Assembly (NCBI GenBank): GCA_026706445.1
Contig: JAPOYT010000157.1
Coordinates: forward strand, 1-59,144
DNA: 59,144 nucleotides
Direction: 5' to 3'
DNA from: Chloroflexota bacterium
Lineage (GTDB): Bacteria; Chloroflexota; Anaerolineae; Aggregatilineales; Phototrophicaceae
The notes under the pieces are model-generated. The model ran no database searches and was not told the DNA's origin. It saw nothing but the letters and a program-made list of their open reading frames with translations. Positions within the stretch are counted from its first letter, which is position 1, and each line of letters starts with the position of its first letter. Below are positions 32,797 to 42,071 of the stretch, one piece after another. The translations under genes and the position numbers were made by a program.

Positions 32797-35331
32797 ATGT
32801 CCGACACGGTGACAATCAATGTCGATGGAAAAGAATTCGAGGTAGCGGCCGGGTCGAATCTGGTTGATGCCGCGAAATGGCATGCGGGCAATGACATTCC
32901 CGTATTTTGCTATCATCCCAAGATGGAGCCGGTTGGCATGTGCCGCATGTGCCTGGTCGAATTGGGCAGTCCCGCCCGAGATCGCGCCACGGGCGAGGTG
33001 ATGCTAAACGAGGACGGCAGTCCGCAGATTCGTTATTTTCCCAAGCTGCAAACCGCTTGTACGACGACCGTCAGCGACGGCATGCATGTCAAGACGAATA
33101 CGCAGGAAGTGATCGACGCGCGGAACGATGTGCTGGAATTCCTGCTCTCGAGCCATCCGCTGGATTGCCCGATCTGCGATAAGGGCGGCGAGTGTCCGCT
33201 GCAGAACCTGACGATGCGCCATGGACCGCAGTCTTCGCGGATGTATTTCGAAGACAAGCAATTATTAGAAAAGCATTATCCGCTGGGCGATTTGATCTTC
33301 CTGGACCGCGAGCGCTGCATTCAATGCGCGCGCTGCGTTCGCTTTCAGGACGAGGTAGTTGGCGATGACGTGCTGGCTTTCCACGAGCGTGGACGCCGCT
33401 TGCAAATCATCACCAATTCCGATCCCGGTTTTGATACCTACTTCAGCGGCAACACGACCGACATTTGTCCGGTCGGCGCCTTGACAACCTCCGATTTTCG
33501 CTTTGGCGCGCGTCCTTGGGAATTGAACGAAGTGCCGAGCATTTCGCCCTGGGACGCGGCGGGCGAGAATATCAGCTTGAGCATGCGGCTCGACGGCGAC
33601 TTCGACGGCAAGGCGGTCATCAAGCGCGTTATGCCGCGCCAGAACGAGCGCGTTAACGAGATCTGGATTAGCGACAAGACACGATTCGGTCACCACTTTA
33701 CACGCAGCGAAGATCGGCTGCGGCAGCCAATGATGCGGACCGGTGGCGCCTTGCGCGAGTCCAATTGGGGCGCGGTGATGCCGGCTCTGGCTAGCGCCTT
33801 GAAAGCCGCCGATGGCGATGTGGCGGCGATCGCTGGCAGCGGCATGCCCAACGAAGACTTGTGGGAATTGCGAAAATTGGTAGAAGGGCTAGGCGGCTCT
33901 CGGCTGGGCGCCTGGATGCCGACGCAGGGCGGCGCGGAAATCGCGGCGGAAGTTGGCGTCGGCTTCGGGACGAATCTGGGTCAGTTGGGGCGGGGCGACG
34001 CAGTTTTGGTGATCGCCTCGGACCTGGAAGAAGAGGCGCCGATCTGGCATCTGCGGCTGAAGCAAGCGCAAGACCGCGGCGCTTATCTGGTTGTCGCCAA
34101 CGCGCGACATACGCGGCTGGAAGATTTCGCCGTGCAAGGCGCGCGCTATGACAAGGTGGTCGAAGGCGATGCCATCCGCTGCGGCGCGGGCGACGCGGTT
34201 GAAGTGATGCAAAATCTCAGCGCTGATTATCCGGCGATTGCCGAGCGTTTGAGCGGAGCCGAGAATTTAGTGATTGTCGCCGGCGCAGAGGGGCTGACGC
34301 TTTCCGGCAGCGGGGCGCTGGCGCAGGCGGCCGCCAATTTCCTGATCGAAAGCGGACATATCGGCCGGCGCAATAATGGCTTGCTCTTGCCCTTGCCGGG
34401 CGCAAATGGCATGGGCTTGCATTATCTGGGATTCAAGCCCGAGGCGACACTGGACATCATGGAAAATCCGCCGAAAGCGCTGATTGTGGCGCAGGCGGAG
34501 TTGCTTGATGACGATCCGGCCGCCAGTAGCTGGCTCAGCCAAGTTGATACGGTCATCTATGCCAACTTATTTGATGATGGCATATCCGAGCTTGCCGATT
34601 ACGTTTTGCCCATACAAAGTTTCGCCGAGCGCGATGGCAGTTTCGTAAACGGCGAGCGGCGCATACAACGCTTCTATACCGCGCAGGGTCCGATTGGTCA
34701 GGCGCTGCCCGGCTGGAGGCTATTCGGCAGCCTGCGTCAGGAGCTCGGCGCCGGGCATTTGAATCCGTCCGCGGCCGCCGTCATGCTTGACTTGAGCGCC
34801 AATATCGATGCTTTCGCTGGCGCAAGCTACAAGGAGCTCGCGAAGGTGAAGCGCGAATTCCCCGATGTCGGCGGCCGCGATCAATATTATGGCGGCACCG
34901 CTTATACCAATACGGGCGGTCTGGGGATACAGATTCCATCTGCGTCCGACAAGCGCAAAGGGCGGCGTCCGCGGCGCATCGGGACCTACGAGCAGCCAAA
35001 CCTGGAAGAAAACGAAGTTCTTATCATGCCGATCACGCGGCTTTACAACCGCCAGCGCAATTTCCGCCCGACACTGATTCTTGAGCCGCGAATCATGACG
35101 CCGTTTGCCATCATCAATTCTACAGATGCCGCGGCGATGGGAATCAGCGATGGAGATATTGTAGAGATCGTCGCCGGAGAATCGCGCGTTCGCGTTCGGG
35201 CGGCGCTTAGCGAGGATATTGCTGCCGGAGCGGTGGCGCTTCCCCGTCATTTGACGGATGAAGCCATCCCGCTGACGGTCACTGCGGGGCGGATCAGGGT
35301 GGTCGCGGAAGCGATCGCCGCTGGCGGTTGA
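32797..35331 (+). CDS. nuoG: NADH-quinone oxidoreductase subunit G
   Basis: 844-residue iron-sulfur subunit of the NADH module. N-terminal [2Fe-2S] N1b ligands lie in FCYHPKMEPVGMCRMCLVE and a later Cys (QTACTT); N5 uses the His and Cys of SSHPLDCPICDKGGECPLQ; N4 uses RCIQCARCVRF and ICPVGAL. The N7 Cys motif found in E. coli NuoG is absent (ELNEVPSISPWDAAGEN replaces it), as in mitochondrial homologues. The rest is a molybdopterin-oxidoreductase-like fold without metal cofactor, ending in a beta-barrel domain. ATG 32797 has a GGAGG ribosome site. Confidence 0.95.
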   Translation: MSDTVTINVDGKEFEVAAGSNLVDAAKWHAGNDIPVFCYHPKMEPVGMCRMCLVELGSPARDRATGEVMLNEDGSPQIRYFPKLQTACTTTVSDGMHVKTNTQEVIDARNDVLEFLLSSHPLDCPICDKGGECPLQNLTMRHGPQSSRMYFEDKQLLEKHYPLGDLIFLDRERCIQCARCVRFQDEVVGDDVLAFHERGRRLQIITNSDPGFDTYFSGNTTDICPVGALTTSDFRFGARPWELNEVPSISPWDAAGENISLSMRLDGDFDGKAVIKRVMPRQNERVNEIWISDKTRFGHHFTRSEDRLRQPMMRTGGALRESNWGAVMPALASALKAADGDVAAIAGSGMPNEDLWELRKLVEGLGGSRLGAWMPTQGGAEIAAEVGVGFGTNLGQLGRGDAVLVIASDLEEEAPIWHLRLKQAQDRGAYLVVANARHTRLEDFAVQGARYDKVVEGDAIRCGAGDAVEVMQNLSADYPAIAERLSGAENLVIVAGAEGLTLSGSGALAQAAANFLIESGHIGRRNNGLLLPLPGANGMGLHYLGFKPEATLDIMENPPKALIVAQAELLDDDPAASSWLSQVDTVIYANLFDDGISELADYVLPIQSFAERDGSFVNGERRIQRFYTAQGPIGQALPGWRLFGSLRQELGAGHLNPSAAAVMLDLSANIDAFAGASYKELAKVKREFPDVGGRDQYYGGTAYTNTGGLGIQIPSASDKRKGRRPRRIGTYEQPNLEENEVLIMPITRLYNRQRNFRPTLILEPRIMTPFAIINSTDAAAMGISDGDIVEIVAGESRVRVRAALSEDIAAGAVALPRHLTDEAIPLTVTAGRIRVVAEAIAAGG

Positions 35332-35348
35332 CGACCGAGGAAAGACGC

Positions 35349-36923
35349 ATGAGCCGAAATTTGAAGATTGCCATCGCTGTCATTGTCGTGGGAGGGCTGG
35401 TCACTACGATTGTGGCGGCAGCGCTCGTCATCGCCAATTTGAGCGCGATTGCAACCTGGATCGGCTTTGACGATGCGCTCAACCTGGATGGACGCCAGGG
35501 CGCGATCGGCATGCTGCTCAATCCGGAAGCGCGCGTCCAGAACGTTGTGCAATGTGAAGACGATGCCGGCTGCTCCGCGCTTTGGCCGATCATATTTGCC
35601 GCTGGTTTCGCCTTTGTCATCGTGACTGGCTTTGCCTATTGCACCTTGTTGGAGCGACGCCTGCTGGCTTTTTTGCAGCATCGCGTGGGTCCCAACCGCA
35701 TCGGACCGCAGGGTTTCTTGCAGCCAGCGGCCGATGGCGTGAAGCTCGTTTTCAAAGAAGACTTGATCCCCGCTGGCGCTGACAAATGGGTCTTCCGCCT
35801 GGCGCCGATGATTAAGGTGATTCCCATCTTGATGATCGCGGCGGTGATCCCGATGGGACCTGATCTGGTCTTGCCTTGGTTCGCGCCCTCGCTTGGCGAT
35901 GTCTGGTTCCAGGCGCCGCAGGGCTTGGTCGATTCCAATGTCGGCATCCTCTGGGTGATCGCCATCACCAGCATCGCCACTTACGGCGTCGTGCTGGCTG
36001 GATGGTCGAGCGACAACAAATACGCGATGCTGGGCGCCTTGCGCGCCTCCGCGCAGATGATCAGCTATGAGCTCAGTTTCGCATTGACGCTGGCGGTCCC
36101 GGTCATGATCGTCGGCAGCATGTCCATCGGCGATATCATTGATGCGCAGCGCAATGTTTGGGATTGGTTCGTCTTCCAGAATCCCTTGGCGGCCGCTGTG
36201 TTGATTCTGGCGCTGTTGGCGGAGACTAACCGCGCGCCCTTCGACCTCACGGAAGCCGAGCAAGAACTGACGCAGGGCTACATGACCGAATACAGCGGCA
36301 TGAAATTCGCCCTCTTTATGATGGCGGAGTATCTGGGCATGATCGCAGTGAGCCTGGTGGCGGTAGCGGTATTCTTCGGCGGCTATCATCTGTGGCCGAT
36401 GGACGGTTTGCCGATTTTGGCGCCGCTCATCTTCATCATCAAGGTCGTCTTGATGCTTTGCGGCATGATCTGGATTCGGGCGACGCTTCCGCGCATTCGT
36501 TACGACCGCTTGATGCAGTTCGGCTGGAAGGTGATGATTCCGCTGGCGCTGCTGGCGGTGGCTTGGACGGCGGTGTCAATCGTGGTTGGCGACGCCTTGG
36601 GCGGCACGGCATATCCCTTCATTTCTGGCGCTGTCTTCGTCCTGGTCCTGCTGATTGGCGCGGTGGCGCTGCGGCGGATGAGTCGCGAGCGGGACAGCGA
36701 AGAAGCGATTCCGCTGGAGGATGACCCAGCCTATACCGGCGAACGGCGAGGCTTGGGCTGGGCTTTGGTTCACGTTGTCGGCATGTTGATAGCGATTCCC
36801 CTGGCGCAAATTCGATTTCAGTTGAGGGCGCTTGAAGGCATGGCGAGCTTCGGGCGGACGCCGGAAGAAGACCGCATAATGGAAAGCGGCGAGACAGCCA
36901 TCAAAACTGCGGGCGGCGAGTAG
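35349..36923 (+). CDS. nuoH: NADH-quinone oxidoreductase subunit H, extended at both ends
   Basis: 524-residue ND1-family membrane subunit that forms the quinone entry chamber. Typical NuoH is about 320-430 residues. The conserved core starts near residue 80 (CTLLERRLLAFLQHRVGPNR, GFLQPAADGVKLVFKE) and contains NRAPFDLTEAEQELTQGYMT. In front of it is an extra membrane helix (about 7-30) and an extracytoplasmic loop with two Cys (about 31-75). Behind it are a further helix, a charged linker (about 442-466), one more helix and a soluble tail. ATG 35349 with AGGAAAG is chosen over TTG 35328, which overlaps nuoG. Confidence 0.93.
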   Translation: MSRNLKIAIAVIVVGGLVTTIVAAALVIANLSAIATWIGFDDALNLDGRQGAIGMLLNPEARVQNVVQCEDDAGCSALWPIIFAAGFAFVIVTGFAYCTLLERRLLAFLQHRVGPNRIGPQGFLQPAADGVKLVFKEDLIPAGADKWVFRLAPMIKVIPILMIAAVIPMGPDLVLPWFAPSLGDVWFQAPQGLVDSNVGILWVIAITSIATYGVVLAGWSSDNKYAMLGALRASAQMISYELSFALTLAVPVMIVGSMSIGDIIDAQRNVWDWFVFQNPLAAAVLILALLAETNRAPFDLTEAEQELTQGYMTEYSGMKFALFMMAEYLGMIAVSLVAVAVFFGGYHLWPMDGLPILAPLIFIIKVVLMLCGMIWIRATLPRIRYDRLMQFGWKVMIPLALLAVAWTAVSIVVGDALGGTAYPFISGAVFVLVLLIGAVALRRMSRERDSEEAIPLEDDPAYTGERRGLGWALVHVVGMLIAIPLAQIRFQLRALEGMASFGRTPEEDRIMESGETAIKTAGGE

Positions 36924-36985: not shown

Positions 36986-37480
36986 ATGAACGTCATCAAA
37001 GGGTTCCAAACCACCTTGAAGCATCTGATGGATGATGCGGTTACGGTGCAGTATCCGGAACAAGTGCAGAAATTTCATGATCGATACAAGGGACGGCATC
37101 ACCTTCGCCGCTTTGAAAACGGTCTGGAGAAGTGCATCGGCTGTTCGCTTTGCGCGGCCGCTTGCCCGGCTGACGCTATATGGGTGGAAGCGGCGGAAAA
37201 CACCGATGAAGAACGTTACAGCCCAGGCGAACGCTATGCCAAGACTTATGAGATCAACATGCTGCGCTGCATTTTTTGCGGCTATTGCGAAGACGCCTGC
37301 CCAACCGAAGCAATACAACTCGGCCACGAGCATCAGATGTCGTTCACTGATCGGCGCGATGCGATTTATACAAAAGACATGCTGATCGATCCGCCGCAAG
37401 AAGGCGCGGCTGATACACCGCAGGAAGTTGAAGCGGGGGCTTTCAACCGCTCGATTCCGGATATGGAAGATCCGTCATAG
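36986..37480 (+). CDS. nuoI: NADH-quinone oxidoreductase subunit I
   Basis: 164-residue ferredoxin-like subunit with clusters N6a and N6b, linking NuoG to NuoB. Two full C-x2-C-x2-C-x3-CP motifs: CIGCSLCAAACPADAI and CIFCGYCEDACPTEAI. The N-terminal helix lies along the membrane (VIKGFQTTLKHL). The last 30 residues are an acidic Pro/Glu tail. It is the last gene of the first transcription unit; a 350-base gap follows. Confidence 0.96.
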   Translation: MNVIKGFQTTLKHLMDDAVTVQYPEQVQKFHDRYKGRHHLRRFENGLEKCIGCSLCAAACPADAIWVEAAENTDEERYSPGERYAKTYEINMLRCIFCGYCEDACPTEAIQLGHEHQMSFTDRRDAIYTKDMLIDPPQEGAADTPQEVEAGAFNRSIPDMEDPS

Positions 37481-37552
37481 CGGCGGCGCGCAATAGCCTG
37501 CTTTGGAATCGGTGACAATCGTGGAGATTTTCCCTTTGACGAACACTGTAAA

Positions 37553-37706
37553 TTCTTTACCACAGAGGACACCGAGTACTAACAGAGAACACAGAGTTTT
37601 CATTTTACTTGGCAGAGCGCTCAGTTAGGTGGACATTAGCGATTCTGCAGAAGAGCGTGGATATGAACCAACACAAAGCGCAGAATATTTCCTCTGTGGT
37701 GAAGAA
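37553..37706. mobile_element. 154-bp element with terminal inverted repeats (MITE-like)
   Basis: Left end TTCTTTACCACAGAGGA (37553-37569) and right end TCCTCTGTGGTGAAGAA (37690-37706) are inverted copies with 16 of 17 matches. No ORF lies between them. Inside the left end are further ACAGAG units. Size and ends fit a small non-autonomous element or a REP-type repeat. No clear target duplication was seen. Confidence 0.6.
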
Positions 37707-37768
37707 CTGAGCGGTATTCGATTAAGGGTGATTCGCAAAAGATTTACGACTCCCGCGCTTAATGCGAA

Positions 37769-37797
37769 TTGAAGCGAGTTGGACTTTGTGCTAAAAT
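37769..37797 (+). promoter_or_regulatory. Predicted promoter of the nuoJ-N unit
   Basis: TTGAAG (37769-37774), 17-base spacer, TAAAAT (37792-37797) preceded by TGC, an extended -10. It lies 33 bases before the nuoJ ATG and gives the membrane-arm genes their own start. Confidence 0.7.
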
Positions 37798-37807
37798 GCA
37801 CAAAGTC
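37782..37807. promoter_or_regulatory. 26-bp perfect palindrome centred on the nuoJ -10 box
   Basis: Arms GACTTTGTGC (37782-37791) and GCACAAAGTC (37798-37807) are perfect inverted copies with TAAAAT as the 6-base centre. A dimeric repressor bound here would cover the -10 box. As RNA it could only form if transcription began further upstream, with no U-run after it, so an operator is the better reading. Confidence 0.65.
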
Positions 37808-37830
37808 ATTCTGAACAGGAATTAAGTTGT

Positions 37831-39219
37831 ATGGAATGGTTGTTCCTGGCTGTTAGCTTTGTAGCCGTCCTGGCGGCCGGCATGATGCTGACGCGGCAGA
37901 ACGCGGTACACAGCGCCCTCTTCCTGATCGTCAACTTTGGTTGCGTCGCTTTCCTATATTTGATGCTGGACGCGCCCTTCCTGGCGATGGTGCAGGTGAC
38001 CGTCTATACCGGCGCGATCATGGTGCTTTTTCTCTTCGTTATCATGCTGTTAGGCGCTGAAACGACCACCGATACGTCGGGGCGGATGCGCTGGCTGGGT
38101 TTGGCCGGTTCCGCAGTCGCCATCATATTGCTGTTGATCTTCGCCTTTCCCATCGCATCGGATATGCTCGCGGATGAAATGGCGCCGCCGCAGGATTCGC
38201 GCGCGCAGTTGCGGGTCATCAATGCGATTCCGGGCGGCGATGCGGAAGAATTCATGGTGATGGAAATGGGTTTCGCCATGCCGCTGGTTGGCACGGTTAG
38301 CGCCAGCGTCGCCCTGGACGCGGTCGACGAGTCGATGGCCGACAGCCGTATCGATTCCGTCGTCTACAGCGATTCGCCCGAAGCGATCCGCGGATACACC
38401 GAGCTAGAAGCGGGCGCCTACACGGTGGTGGTCGGCGTCGATGACGGCAGCTATGTCTCCGGACCCGTCTTCATAAAGGATCTGGTTTTGCCGCCGGATT
38501 CCGCCTTTTCCGTGGTGGTTTATGAAAATGAAGAAGGCATGGTCGATGTGACCGTGCTGTCCGATGACATCAGCGCGCCCGACGTCGGTGCGATGCGCCT
38601 GACGCTCTTCAACGCCGTGACCGATCGGCAGGTGTCGCTGGTCAATATCGGTCAATACACGGCGCGGCGCACACTCTGCGATGACGCTGCTTGCACCAGC
38701 TTGATTCCGCATCGCCGCCTGATTGATCAGTTGCCGGCCGGCGATCATACCAGCATCGCGCTTGATGAAGGCGCATACAACCTGGCATTCGTCGATCAAG
38801 ACCAGAATATCTTGCGTACACTGGCTGACTACAAAGCCGAGCGCGGGCTTATCGAGACGCGCGTGCTGGTGCGCGAGCCGGGCGTGCCGGGCAGCCAGCC
38901 CAGCTATCGCGCCGCCGTCTTTACCGCTTTGGGCGCCCCCGCATTCGGCAGTCCCGAATCGGTGGGGCAGGTTCTGTTCATCGAATATGTGCTGCCGGTG
39001 ATGCTGGTGGGCATGCTGCTGCTGGTCGCTCTCATTGGCGTGATCGTGCTGGCGCGGCCCGATGCCTTGGCGCAGGCCGAGCGCCGCCGCATTAATCGCC
39101 GCCGCCGCGTCAATCGGCCGCTGGTCAGCGTCATTTCGCAGCAGACGGGCTCGGATGTATTGAGCGGCGAGTATATGGCGAAGCTGACTGGCGGATCCGA
39201 CGATGGCTCGGACCAGTAG
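37831..39219 (+). CDS. nuoJ: NADH-quinone oxidoreductase subunit J with inserted DUF4397-like region
   Basis: 462 residues, against about 165-220 for usual NuoJ (ND6). Helices 1-4 are at about 3-22, 28-47, 54-76 and 88-110, including the conserved LAMVQVTVYTGAIMVLFLFV helix. Helix 5 is at about 384-407 (EYVLPVMLVGMLLLVALIGV). Between helices 4 and 5 are about 240 extra residues (120-360) of beta-rich sequence: QLRVINAIPGG, RGYTELEAGAYTVVVGVDDG, then a second unit MRLTLFNAVTDRQVSLVNIG. This spacing resembles DUF4397 repeats. Two Cys (283, 288) might form a disulfide. With the usual NuoJ topology, N-terminus outside, the insert is extracytoplasmic. A basic C-terminal tail follows helix 5. The reading frame is unbroken and flanks are canonical. 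Confidence 0.92.
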   Translation: MEWLFLAVSFVAVLAAGMMLTRQNAVHSALFLIVNFGCVAFLYLMLDAPFLAMVQVTVYTGAIMVLFLFVIMLLGAETTTDTSGRMRWLGLAGSAVAIILLLIFAFPIASDMLADEMAPPQDSRAQLRVINAIPGGDAEEFMVMEMGFAMPLVGTVSASVALDAVDESMADSRIDSVVYSDSPEAIRGYTELEAGAYTVVVGVDDGSYVSGPVFIKDLVLPPDSAFSVVVYENEEGMVDVTVLSDDISAPDVGAMRLTLFNAVTDRQVSLVNIGQYTARRTLCDDAACTSLIPHRRLIDQLPAGDHTSIALDEGAYNLAFVDQDQNILRTLADYKAERGLIETRVLVREPGVPGSQPSYRAAVFTALGAPAFGSPESVGQVLFIEYVLPVMLVGMLLLVALIGVIVLARPDALAQAERRRINRRRRVNRPLVSVISQQTGSDVLSGEYMAKLTGGSDDGSDQ

Positions 39220-39237: not shown

Positions 39238-39546
39238 ATGAATCCGATTGGCGCCGAGCCCTATATCGTCTTGAGCATGGTATTGTTTCTGCTGGGGGCG
39301 CTTGGCGTCCTTATGCGGCGGAACGCCATCCTGGTATTCATGTCAGTCGAGTTGATGCTGAATTCGGCGAACCTCGCGCTGGTCGCCTTTGCTCGCGAGT
39401 GGGGCCAGGTGAACGGGCATGTCTTCGTATTCTTCGTGATGACCGTGGCCGCGGCGGAAGTGGCAGTAGGCTTGGCGCTGATTGTGAACATATTCCGCGA
39501 GCGCCAGAGCATTAATATTGACGATTTGCAGCAGATGCAAGGCTGA
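39238..39546 (+). CDS. nuoK: NADH-quinone oxidoreductase subunit K
   Basis: 102-residue ND4L-family membrane subunit with three helices. The two functionally key Glu residues are present in [18 protein letters not shown] and [15 protein letters not shown]. Normal size, 18 bases after nuoJ. Confidence 0.96.
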
Positions 39547-39575: not shown

Positions 39576-42071
39576 ATGGAAAACCTCCCGCTCCTCGTTC
39601 CACTTGTGATACTTGCGCCGGCATTGGGCGCATTTATCAACTTCTTCTTCGGCGCCAAGTTTGAGGAGAAGTGGTCGGGTTACATCGGCTGTTTCGCTTC
39701 CGTCTTTGCATTCATTGTTTCATTGCTTCTCTTGACTTATGTGACTGGAACCAACGGCGCGGCGGCGGTCGTTAATCCGCCCTTTGTGGATGGCTGGCTG
39801 CGGATTGAATCCATCGGCCTCGATATCTCCTGGCAGCAGCGCGTCGACTCGCTGAGCGTGACGATGATGCTGGTTGTGACCGGCGTCGGCTCGCTTATCC
39901 ATCTGTATGCCCGCGGTTATATGCACGGGGACAAGTGGTATCCGCGCTTCTTCGCCTACTTGAATATGTTCCTGGCTTTCATGCTCATCTTGGTGACGGG
40001 CAACAACTTCCTGATGCTCTTCGTTGGCTGGGAGGGCGTCGGGCTTTGCTCGTTCTTGCTCATCGGATTCTGGTGGGACAAGAAGGCGCCCGAGGGCTGG
40101 AAGAATAGCAACGCGGCGCGTAAAGCCTTCATCGTCAATCGCATCGGCGATTTCGGCTTGCTGATGGCGATGTTTCTCATCTTTTGGACCTTCGGCACGC
40201 TGGATTTTCACCGGGCGGGCGAGCTGCCCAATACGGAAGCGAAATACCTCGTCCATTGGCGCGAACACAATGGCCTGCTGGAACACAAGGAAGAAGCGGA
40301 TAAGGACGCCGCTGGCGACGCCCATGAAAAGGCTTACAAGTGCGTCCCGGCTGGCGCCGACCACGACGCAATGGACGCCCATGCCGATGACGCGCCGGGC
40401 AAACCGAATCCGCTGGCGAGCGACATCCGCGCCATCTATTGCGACAATGATCATTTTGATATCGCCCTGCTGGGCGTATTTGGCCAAACGACCGAGCGTT
40501 TCGGAACGGGAGAAACGGTCGACTTCGGCAGTTTCCAGATGGCTTTCGATGATGTCATCTTGTTGATCGCCCTGTTCATCCTGCTCGGCGTCACCGGCAA
40601 GTCGGCGCAGATTCCTCTCTTCGTTTGGCTGCCTGACGCAATGGCTGGTCCGACGCCGGTCAGCGCTTTGATACACGCGGCGACCATGGTCACCGCTGGC
40701 GTCTTCATATTGGTGCGCTCCAACGTTTTCTTGTGGGAGTTGAATCACGGCGGTTATGTTATCGGGCTGGTCATCACGCTGGTAGGAGCAGGCACGGCGC
40801 TTATGGCGGGTTATATCGCGCTAGGTCAGTGGGATATCAAGCGGGTGCTCGCCTATTCGACGATTTCGCAGCTCGGCTTTATGGTGGCGGCGGTCGGCAT
40901 TGGCGCTTATGTCGCGGCTATGTTCCACCTGGTGACGCACGCCGTATTCAAGGCGCTGTTATTCCTCGGCAGCGGCTCAGTTATCCACGGTGTTGAGCAC
41001 GGTCATCACCACGCGCATGAACATGGGCACAGCCATGACGCTGACCAGACTGATGACCATCACCACGAAGATGAAGAAGAATTCGACGCGCAGGACATGC
41101 GCAATATGGGCGGCTTGCGCAAGCGGATGCCCATCACTTACCTCACCTATTTGATTGGCACGCTGGCGCTGGCAGGTATTTTCCCCTTCGCTGGATTCTG
41201 GTCGAAAGACGAGATTCTCGCCGATGCCTGGTACGAAGGCTTTGAACTGAATGAACTGAGCGGCTTCATCGCATTTGGCGTATTGCTGGTCGCCGCTGCT
41301 TTTACCGCCTTCTATATGTGGCGGCAGATTGTGCTGGTTTTCCTGGATCAGCCACGCAGCGAAGCGGCTGAACAAGCGCCGGAGAGCAATGGCGCGATGC
41401 TGCTGCCGTTGCTGATTTTGGCGGTGTTCACGCTCATCATCGGTTTCATCAATGTGCCGAAAGCGACGCCGATATTCGATGGGATTTACCATCCCTACGA
41501 ATTCAAGCATTTTTTGGAGCACAGCCTGGTCAGCGTGTCGCGCGGGCACGTGCTGGATTTCAACCTCTCCATCGCCGGCATCGCCTTGGCGCTGGGCATC
41601 GTATCGATCCTGGTTGCCAACCGCGTCTACAAGGGCAAGGGACTGGCGAGCGGCAATCGCGATTTGCTGGAAGCGGGCGGCGCGTCGCGTCCGCTATTCA
41701 GGTTGGCGAATGCTCGGCTTTACTGGGACGAATTCTATTCGGCGGTTGTAGAGCAGCCATTCAACCGACTGGCGAGCTTCCTGGCTGACCGAGTCGACTG
41801 GGATTTCCTGCACAATTATTTCCACGACAGCATAATCAAGCGCGGCTTCGACACGATCGCTGAATTGCTCGGCAAGCCCTTTGATCTTGGCATTGTCGAT
41901 GGCGCGGTCAATGGCGTTGGCGCCTTTGTGCAACGCGCGGCCGAGTGGATGCGGCGCTCACAGACCGGCTACGTGCGTCTCTACGCGATTGTGCTCTTCA
42001 TCGGCGTCGTGGCCGTCATTACCCTCATGATCTATCCCTTTGTTCAGACGCTGCTCGCCGGCGGCTCTTAA
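39576..42071 (+). CDS. nuoL: NADH-quinone oxidoreductase subunit L with two inserted loops
   Basis: 831 residues, against about 610-680 usually. It is the distal antiporter-like proton-pumping subunit (ND5). The core is canonical: FVGWEGVGLCSFLLIGFW, QIPLFVWLPDAMAGPTPVSA, HAATMVTAGVFILVRSN and KRVLAYSTISQLGFM. Two insertions are seen. At about 218-310 there is a hydrophilic loop rich in Asp, Glu, Ala and His with two Cys. At about 473-505, directly after FLGSGSVIHGVEH, is a run of about ten His with Glu/Asp, before DMRNMGGLRKRMP resumes the family sequence. The C-terminal lateral helix region is present to the end. Confidence 0.95.
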   Translation: MENLPLLVPLVILAPALGAFINFFFGAKFEEKWSGYIGCFASVFAFIVSLLLLTYVTGTNGAAAVVNPPFVDGWLRIESIGLDISWQQRVDSLSVTMMLVVTGVGSLIHLYARGYMHGDKWYPRFFAYLNMFLAFMLILVTGNNFLMLFVGWEGVGLCSFLLIGFWWDKKAPEGWKNSNAARKAFIVNRIGDFGLLMAMFLIFWTFGTLDFHRAGELPNTEAKYLVHWREHNGLLEHKEEADKDAAGDAHEKAYKCVPAGADHDAMDAHADDAPGKPNPLASDIRAIYCDNDHFDIALLGVFGQTTERFGTGETVDFGSFQMAFDDVILLIALFILLGVTGKSAQIPLFVWLPDAMAGPTPVSALIHAATMVTAGVFILVRSNVFLWELNHGGYVIGLVITLVGAGTALMAGYIALGQWDIKRVLAYSTISQLGFMVAAVGIGAYVAAMFHLVTHAVFKALLFLGSGSVIHGVEHGHHHAHEHGHSHDADQTDDHHHEDEEEFDAQDMRNMGGLRKRMPITYLTYLIGTLALAGIFPFAGFWSKDEILADAWYEGFELNELSGFIAFGVLLVAAAFTAFYMWRQIVLVFLDQPRSEAAEQAPESNGAMLLPLLILAVFTLIIGFINVPKATPIFDGIYHPYEFKHFLEHSLVSVSRGHVLDFNLSIAGIALALGIVSILVANRVYKGKGLASGNRDLLEAGGASRPLFRLANARLYWDEFYSAVVEQPFNRLASFLADRVDWDFLHNYFHDSIIKRGFDTIAELLGKPFDLGIVDGAVNGVGAFVQRAAEWMRRSQTGYVRLYAIVLFIGVVAVITLMIYPFVQTLLAGGS

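What the first reader, a model, noticed from the sequence alone, without database searches (positions are those of the whole stretch)
38191..38910. A DUF4397-like extracytoplasmic module inserted in NuoJ
Seen: NuoJ is 462 residues with about 240 residues between helices 4 and 5, in frame and flanked by canonical sequence. The insert has two beta-rich repeats (RVINAIPGG...GYTELEAGAYTVVVG; MRLTLFNAVTDRQVSL) with the look of DUF4397. Known: NuoJ/ND6 is normally short and the helix 4-5 loop faces outside. Inference: complex I here carries an added outer-face domain, perhaps for docking to a wall component or partner enzyme. I know of no described complex I with this feature.
Basis: partly seen in the sequence, partly recalled or inferred. 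Interest (0 to 1): 0.82.

Follow-up and report, generated by a model that had tools for sequence, protein, structure and literature searches.

The report
Extra outer domain on complex I
In one order of Chloroflexota bacteria, the membrane subunit NuoJ of the respiratory enzyme complex I carries a roughly 240-residue double domain that should stick out on the outer face of the cell membrane; it was gained once, is kept by selection and is found in no other complex I that I could check.

Summary
NuoJ (37831-39219, 462 aa) is one intact reading frame. Between TM4 and TM5 it carries about 240 extra residues that Pfam calls DUF4397 above its curated cut-off (E 1.6e-9). Profile comparison shows two DUF4397 repeats, related to each other and to a secreted DUF4397 protein of the same genome. 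It is not an assembly error: the insert occurs at the same place, in the same operon, in five families of the order (37 of 37 aligned proteins have DUF4397). One of these genomes is a closed chromosome whose length equals that of the cultured Phototrophicus methaneseepsis ZRK33. The three early-branching families f6, f60 and f61, and every other order or class sampled, have an ordinary NuoJ. The tree needs one gain and one clean loss. Selection preserves the insert (dN/dS about 0.15). Charge pattern and even cysteine counts place it outside the cytoplasm. AlphaFold failed on the allowed shallow alignment, so the fold is unproven. Function is inferred: an outer docking or stabilising cap. The NuoH subunit of the clade also gained an outer cysteine pair. 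New variant of a known kind; testable in a culture with deposited proteomics data.

The parts
37831..39219 (+). nuoJ, complex I subunit J, 462 aa with insert
   Evidence: Oxidored_q3 E 1.3e-36
37831..38166 (+). NuoJ TM1-TM4 (residues 1-112), canonical, with the conserved TM3 motif VYTGAIMVLFLFVIMLLG
   Evidence: invariant columns
38167..38943 (+). insert in the TM4-TM5 loop (residues about 113-371), extracytoplasmic
   Evidence: the loop is only about 20-26 aa in f6/f60 and similarly short in f61
38203..38580 (+). first DUF4397-type repeat (residues about 125-250)
   Evidence: Pfam best stretch residues 178-265; hhalign against the secreted DUF4397 protein, prob 97.4
38587..38916 (+). second DUF4397-type repeat (residues about 253-362)
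   Evidence: repeat 1 against repeat 2, prob 96.2, E 2.7e-9
38677..38694 (+). Cys283 and Cys288 of the insert, a likely disulfide, conserved in the genus only
   Evidence: cysteine counts in inserts are 0, 2 or 4, never odd
38944..39216 (+). NuoJ loop end, TM5 and Arg-rich cytoplasmic C-tail (residues 372-462)
35328..36923 (+). nuoH of the same operon, with an N-terminal extension (extra TM plus outer loop; true start probably ATG at 35349)
35553..35573 (+). NuoH Cys76/Cys82 pair just before TM1 (QCEDDAGC), shared by f1-f5, f60 and f61
39238..39546 (+). nuoK, directly downstream (operon context)

Best explanation
The gene encodes a functional NuoJ in which a tandem DUF4397 module, most likely derived from the secreted DUF4397 proteins common in these bacteria, was inserted once into the TM4-TM5 loop in the common ancestor of five families of one Chloroflexota order (probably Aggregatilineales). 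The five helices thread as in every NuoJ, so the module is held outside the cytoplasm as a fixed cap over the NuoJ part of the membrane arm. My proposal is that it works as a non-catalytic binding or stabilising cap: one or both repeats provide an outer surface that holds a lineage-specific partner, such as a neighbouring respiratory complex, an accessory subunit or an envelope component. Shown: the gene structure, domain identity, two repeats, single origin, purifying selection. Strongly inferred: the outer location. Only inferred: the binding role and the partner.
For: DUF4397 above cut-off in NuoJ and matched in all 37 aligned homologues. Nearly all f1-f5 genomes whose main nuo operon was found have long NuoJ frames (checks). 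None of 359 genomes of other orders of the class matched the insert-bearing NuoJ profile over its length, nor any from outside the order in the phylum sample. One gain plus one loss on a NuoH/I/J/K tree, with the f1-f5 branch at SH-aLRT 99. dN/dS 0.15 in the insert against 0.035 in the core. K+R per 100 residues: insert 5.8 and L2-3 0, against L3-4 16.0 and C-tail 17.6; insert cysteines 0, 2 or 4. Related DUF4397 proteins of the order begin with signal-peptide-like segments. Catalytic core residues are kept.
Against: No direct evidence of binding or of a partner. One lineage (G308, f4) lost the insert cleanly and kept the operon, so it is not essential everywhere. The insert evolves about four times faster than the core and varies from 216 to 295 aa. 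The fold could not be modelled with confidence.
Confidence: 0.6

Rival explanations
1. Tolerated passenger: the TM4-TM5 loop accepts foreign domains and the DUF4397 pair is kept without a specific task (constructive neutral evolution). It folds and is exported, and selection only removes misfolding variants.
For: Clean loss in G308; fast divergence and length variation; an unrelated insert of roughly 115 aa in the same loop in two f125 genomes of the phylum shows the site is permissive.
Against: Kept across five families at about 30% identity with conserved DUF4397 positions (R128, G195, Y197, R256, N261); only one loss seen in the genomes checked.
Confidence: 0.27
2. The insert anchors complex I to the cell wall or S-layer.
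For: DUF4397 occurs in secreted proteins of these genomes; these bacteria are thought to be monoderm (own knowledge).
Against: No known wall-binding motif was found; Pfam gives only DUF4397 above cut-off in the insert.
Confidence: 0.12
3. The insert is a ligand, metal or redox sensor that regulates the pump.
For: Cysteine pairs in three separate lineages; it sits on a core subunit close to the quinone-module side.
Against: 26 of 37 inserts have no cysteine; the positions conserved across the order are structural Gly/Pro/Ala/Leu plus Arg/Asn of the DUF4397 pattern, with no recognisable catalytic set.
Confidence: 0.06
4. Artefact: two genes fused by an assembly or sequencing error, or a pseudogene.
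For: None found.
Against: Same single ORF in genomes from five families, including one single-contig genome; dN/dS far below 1.
Confidence: 0.01

Closest known systems
NuoJ / ND6 (Oxidored_q3, PF00499) of ordinary bacterial complex I
   Same: Five-helix core, invariant TM3 region, operon place between nuoI and nuoK
   Different: NuoJ/ND6 matches in the PDB are 161-252 aa and the longest NCBIfam NuoJ model that matched is 282 aa; here 462 aa with a tandem domain in the TM4-TM5 loop
DUF4397 (PF14344) secreted proteins of Chloroflexota
   Same: Domain identity and tandem arrangement; the nearest in this genome is a secreted protein with several repeats on contig C146
   Different: Those begin with a signal-peptide-like segment and are not part of an enzyme; here the domain lies inside a loop of a core membrane subunit
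Extracellular domain of peptide transporters PepT1/PepT2 (SLC15), two Ig-like domains between two TM helices
   Same: Same design: two beta domains in tandem in one outer loop of a membrane protein; weak profile hit to PepT2, E 5e-5
   Different: Different protein family; the hit is weak and partly helped by TM residues; analogy only
Supernumerary (accessory) parts of complex I, as in mitochondria or Thermus Nqo15
   Same: Lineage-specific additions to the conserved 14-subunit core
   Different: Those are separate subunits; this is built into a core subunit and on the outer face

Membership tests
NuoJ / Oxidored_q3 (PF00499) | Profile match over both halves above the curated cut-off | tested here: met
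NuoJ / Oxidored_q3 (PF00499) | Place in a nuo operon between nuoI and nuoK | tested here: met
NuoJ / Oxidored_q3 (PF00499) | Full-length match to an NCBIfam NuoJ equivalog above cut-off | tested here: not met
   best 114.7 bits against a cut-off of 192. The insert splits the match, and these models are built on short NuoJs; both halves still match.
DUF4397 (PF14344) | Score above the Pfam gathering cut-off | tested here: met
   38.8 against 30.6 bits; 37 of 37 homologues match at E up to 0.01
DUF4397 (PF14344) | Beta-sandwich fold | tested here: inconclusive
   beta-rich, but mean pLDDT 42 and 39, too low for a fold search
DUF4397 (PF14344) | Extracytoplasmic location | tested here: met
   (charge pattern, cysteine parity, secreted relatives); by inference, not experiment
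Working complex I | Activity and assembly of the complex with this NuoJ | not testable with these tools
   needs the enzyme from a cultured member

The most novel reading that the evidence does not exclude
The outer face of complex I in this order was rebuilt stepwise: first an outer cysteine pair before TM1 of NuoH (f1-f5, f60, f61), then the tandem DUF4397 cap on NuoJ (f1-f5), then extra NuoH helices (f1). Together they form a lineage-specific outer platform that binds a dedicated partner complex, a kind of complex I attachment not described before.
Probability: 0.15. Interest if true: 0.8.

Novelty: new variant of a known kind. Interest (0 to 1): 0.6.

Why it matters
The core subunits of complex I are among the most conserved membrane proteins known, and lineage-specific additions are normally separate accessory subunits. 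A tandem domain built into a core subunit on the outer side, gained once and kept across five families, gives a natural experiment: the order holds genomes before the gain (f6, f60, f61), after it, and one after a loss (G308), plus a second NuoJ of ordinary length in the same cell. One carrier appears to be the cultured Phototrophicus methaneseepsis ZRK33, so existing proteomics data and cryo-EM could test what an outer cap does to a proton pump.

Tried and rejected
Fusion, assembly error or pseudogene: rejected. Structure prediction of the whole protein and of the insert alone: both failed on the only alignment allowed (9 sequences, 83-95% identical for the whole protein, 75-93% for the insert); no fold search was run because low-confidence models give meaningless matches. 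PDB sequence search with the insert alone: nothing. The idea that the insert's cysteine pair is conserved: rejected, it is confined to the genus, with separate pairs in f5 and one f2 genome. The idea that the NuoH cysteine pair and the NuoJ insert arose together: rejected, f60 and f61 have the NuoH pair without the insert and G308 keeps the pair without the insert. Long NuoJ frames outside the order: most were upstream read-through; the real exception, f125, has an unrelated insert. Rfam around the gene: nothing. Papers holding both NuoJ and DUF4397: none.

Full report
What is there. Window 37831-39219 (+) is one open frame of 462 codons between nuoI (36986-37480) and nuoK (39238-39546), in a nuo operon that runs through nuoD, E, F, G, H, I, J, K, L, M and N. 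Pfam finds Oxidored_q3 (NuoJ/ND6) on both sides of an extra stretch, and DUF4397 inside it above the curated cut-off (38.8 against 30.6 bits). A search of the whole genome with DUF4397 finds it in only two places: NuoJ and a secreted protein on contig C146.

Two repeats. Profiles cut from the family alignment at residues 122-250 and 251-366 match each other (hhalign probability 96.2, E 2.7e-9). Repeat 1 matches the secreted DUF4397 protein of the same genome at probability 97.4; repeat 2 reaches 81.3. Pairwise hhalign values are not database E-values, but with the Pfam result the domain identity is safe.

Not an artefact, and not local. With NuoJ as query, the 33 other genomes of the genus have full-length matches at 64-95% identity, and members of five families of the same order have NuoJ reading frames of about 400-570 codons. 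I extracted and aligned 37 of them: all are single ORFs next to nuoK, with the insert at the same place, and all 37 match both Pfam families. The frames not extracted are judged by length only. Of 141 genomes in families f1-f5, I count about 134 with the insert or a contig-end fragment consistent with it, one with a true loss, and six in which no NuoJ of the main operon was recovered. The loss is G308 (f4, 204 aa): its nuoI, nuoJ and nuoK are intact and its tail is of f4 type.

Where it is absent. Families f6, f60 and f61 of the same order have NuoJ of about 180-225 aa without insert. In an even sample of 396 genomes of the class, full-length matches to the insert-bearing profile came only from this order; a sample of 400 from the phylum gave the same answer. 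Only Chloroflexota were sampled broadly, so an independent case in another phylum is not excluded.

History. A tree of NuoH, NuoI, NuoK and the NuoJ core, with the insert columns left out, needs two changes: one gain on the branch leading to f1-f5 (SH-aLRT 99) and one loss, in G308. This is a quick tree without bootstrap, and f5 rows are only 34% filled. Related DUF4397 proteins in other genomes of the order begin with signal-peptide-like segments, a likely source of the domain.

A named member. G379 (family f1) is a single contig of 5,631,885 bases. The paper on Phototrophicus methaneseepsis ZRK33 gives exactly that genome size and one contig (PMC8941918). I conclude, by inference from this number, that the cultured ZRK33 carries the insert (L078:2991-4436, 482 aa). 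A later paper deposits its proteomics data as PXD023380 and reports NADH-quinone oxidoreductase genes upregulated in situ (PMC11005417).

Selection and location. Within the genus, median dN/dS is 0.035 in the helix core, 0.153 in the insert and 0.10 in the C-tail: the insert is constrained but looser than the core. Loops 3-4 and the C-tail are rich in Lys/Arg (16.0 and 17.6 per 100), while loop 2-3 and the insert are poor (0 and 5.8), which puts the insert outside by the positive-inside rule. Cysteines in the insert are 0, 2 or 4 in every sequence, never odd (26, 10 and 1 of 37), as expected for an oxidising compartment. From general knowledge, the TM4-TM5 loop of NuoJ/ND6 is on the outer side.

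Fold. Both show helices where expected and strands in the insert, but they prove nothing. The PDB profile search gives ordinary NuoJ/ND6 chains of 161-252 aa and a weak match to peptide transporter PepT2 (E 5e-5), whose outer loop holds two Ig-like domains (own knowledge). This is an analogy in design only.

NuoH. In f1-f5 and in f60 and f61, NuoH has a cysteine pair (C-x3 to C-x6-C) just before TM1, on the outer side; f6 and other orders lack it. In f1 one or more extra TM segments precede it. G308 keeps the pair although it lost the NuoJ insert, so the two features are separable. The outer face near NuoH and NuoJ was thus changed more than once in this lineage.

Function. I commit to an outer docking or stabilising cap as the most likely role. 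DUF4397 is a non-enzymatic domain as far as known, no catalytic residue set is conserved, the core machinery is unchanged, and constraint is intermediate, as for a surface domain. The partner is unknown; a tolerated passenger is the main rival. The same genome also holds a second, ordinary NuoJ (170 aa) in nuoAHJKLM-type clusters on C66 and C248, so the cap belongs to one complex only.

Verdict. As far as the searched papers and structures go, it is undescribed.

Noticed in passing
35553-35573 (NuoH), L099, L100, L162 and others: NuoH has an outer cysteine pair just before TM1 in families f1-f5, f60 and f61; absent in f6 and in the other orders looked at. f1 also has one or more extra N-terminal TM segments (NuoH up to 741 codons in L087, if its start is right).
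   Followed up: partly
L158:1097-2089 (+) and L159 (minus strand; G734, G770; family f125 of the phylum): NuoJ of 331 aa with an unrelated insert of roughly 115 aa in the same TM4-TM5 loop; only weak Pfam hits (P2 domain, below cut-off). An independent insertion at the same site.
   Followed up: partly
39576-42071 (NuoL): NuoL is 831 aa, with a His/Asp-rich loop (GHHHAHEHGHSHDADQTDDHHHEDEEE) and an extra loop of about 70-100 residues ahead of the GKSAQIPL region, both absent from ordinary NuoL as far as I recall.
   Followed up: no
L198 (G000:C66) and L199 (G000:C248): Second nuo cluster (nuoA, H, J, K, L, M, M/N; no nuoEFG or nuoI seen beside it) with a 170-aa NuoJ without insert, present twice; one copy may be a strain variant or contamination.
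   Followed up: partly
L171 (G308, family f4): Clean secondary loss of the NuoJ insert, with the NuoH cysteine pair kept: a natural deletion.
   Followed up: yes
37481-37830: Gap of about 350 bases between nuoI and nuoJ, widened to over 1.2 kb in family f3 loci (L094, L106, L114); no Rfam match in the window.
   Followed up: partly
NuoJ C-tail, 39055-39216: Conserved Arg-rich cytoplasmic tail (RRKVSRPLTSVIxxQTG in f1) that is absent in f6 and f60.
   Followed up: no
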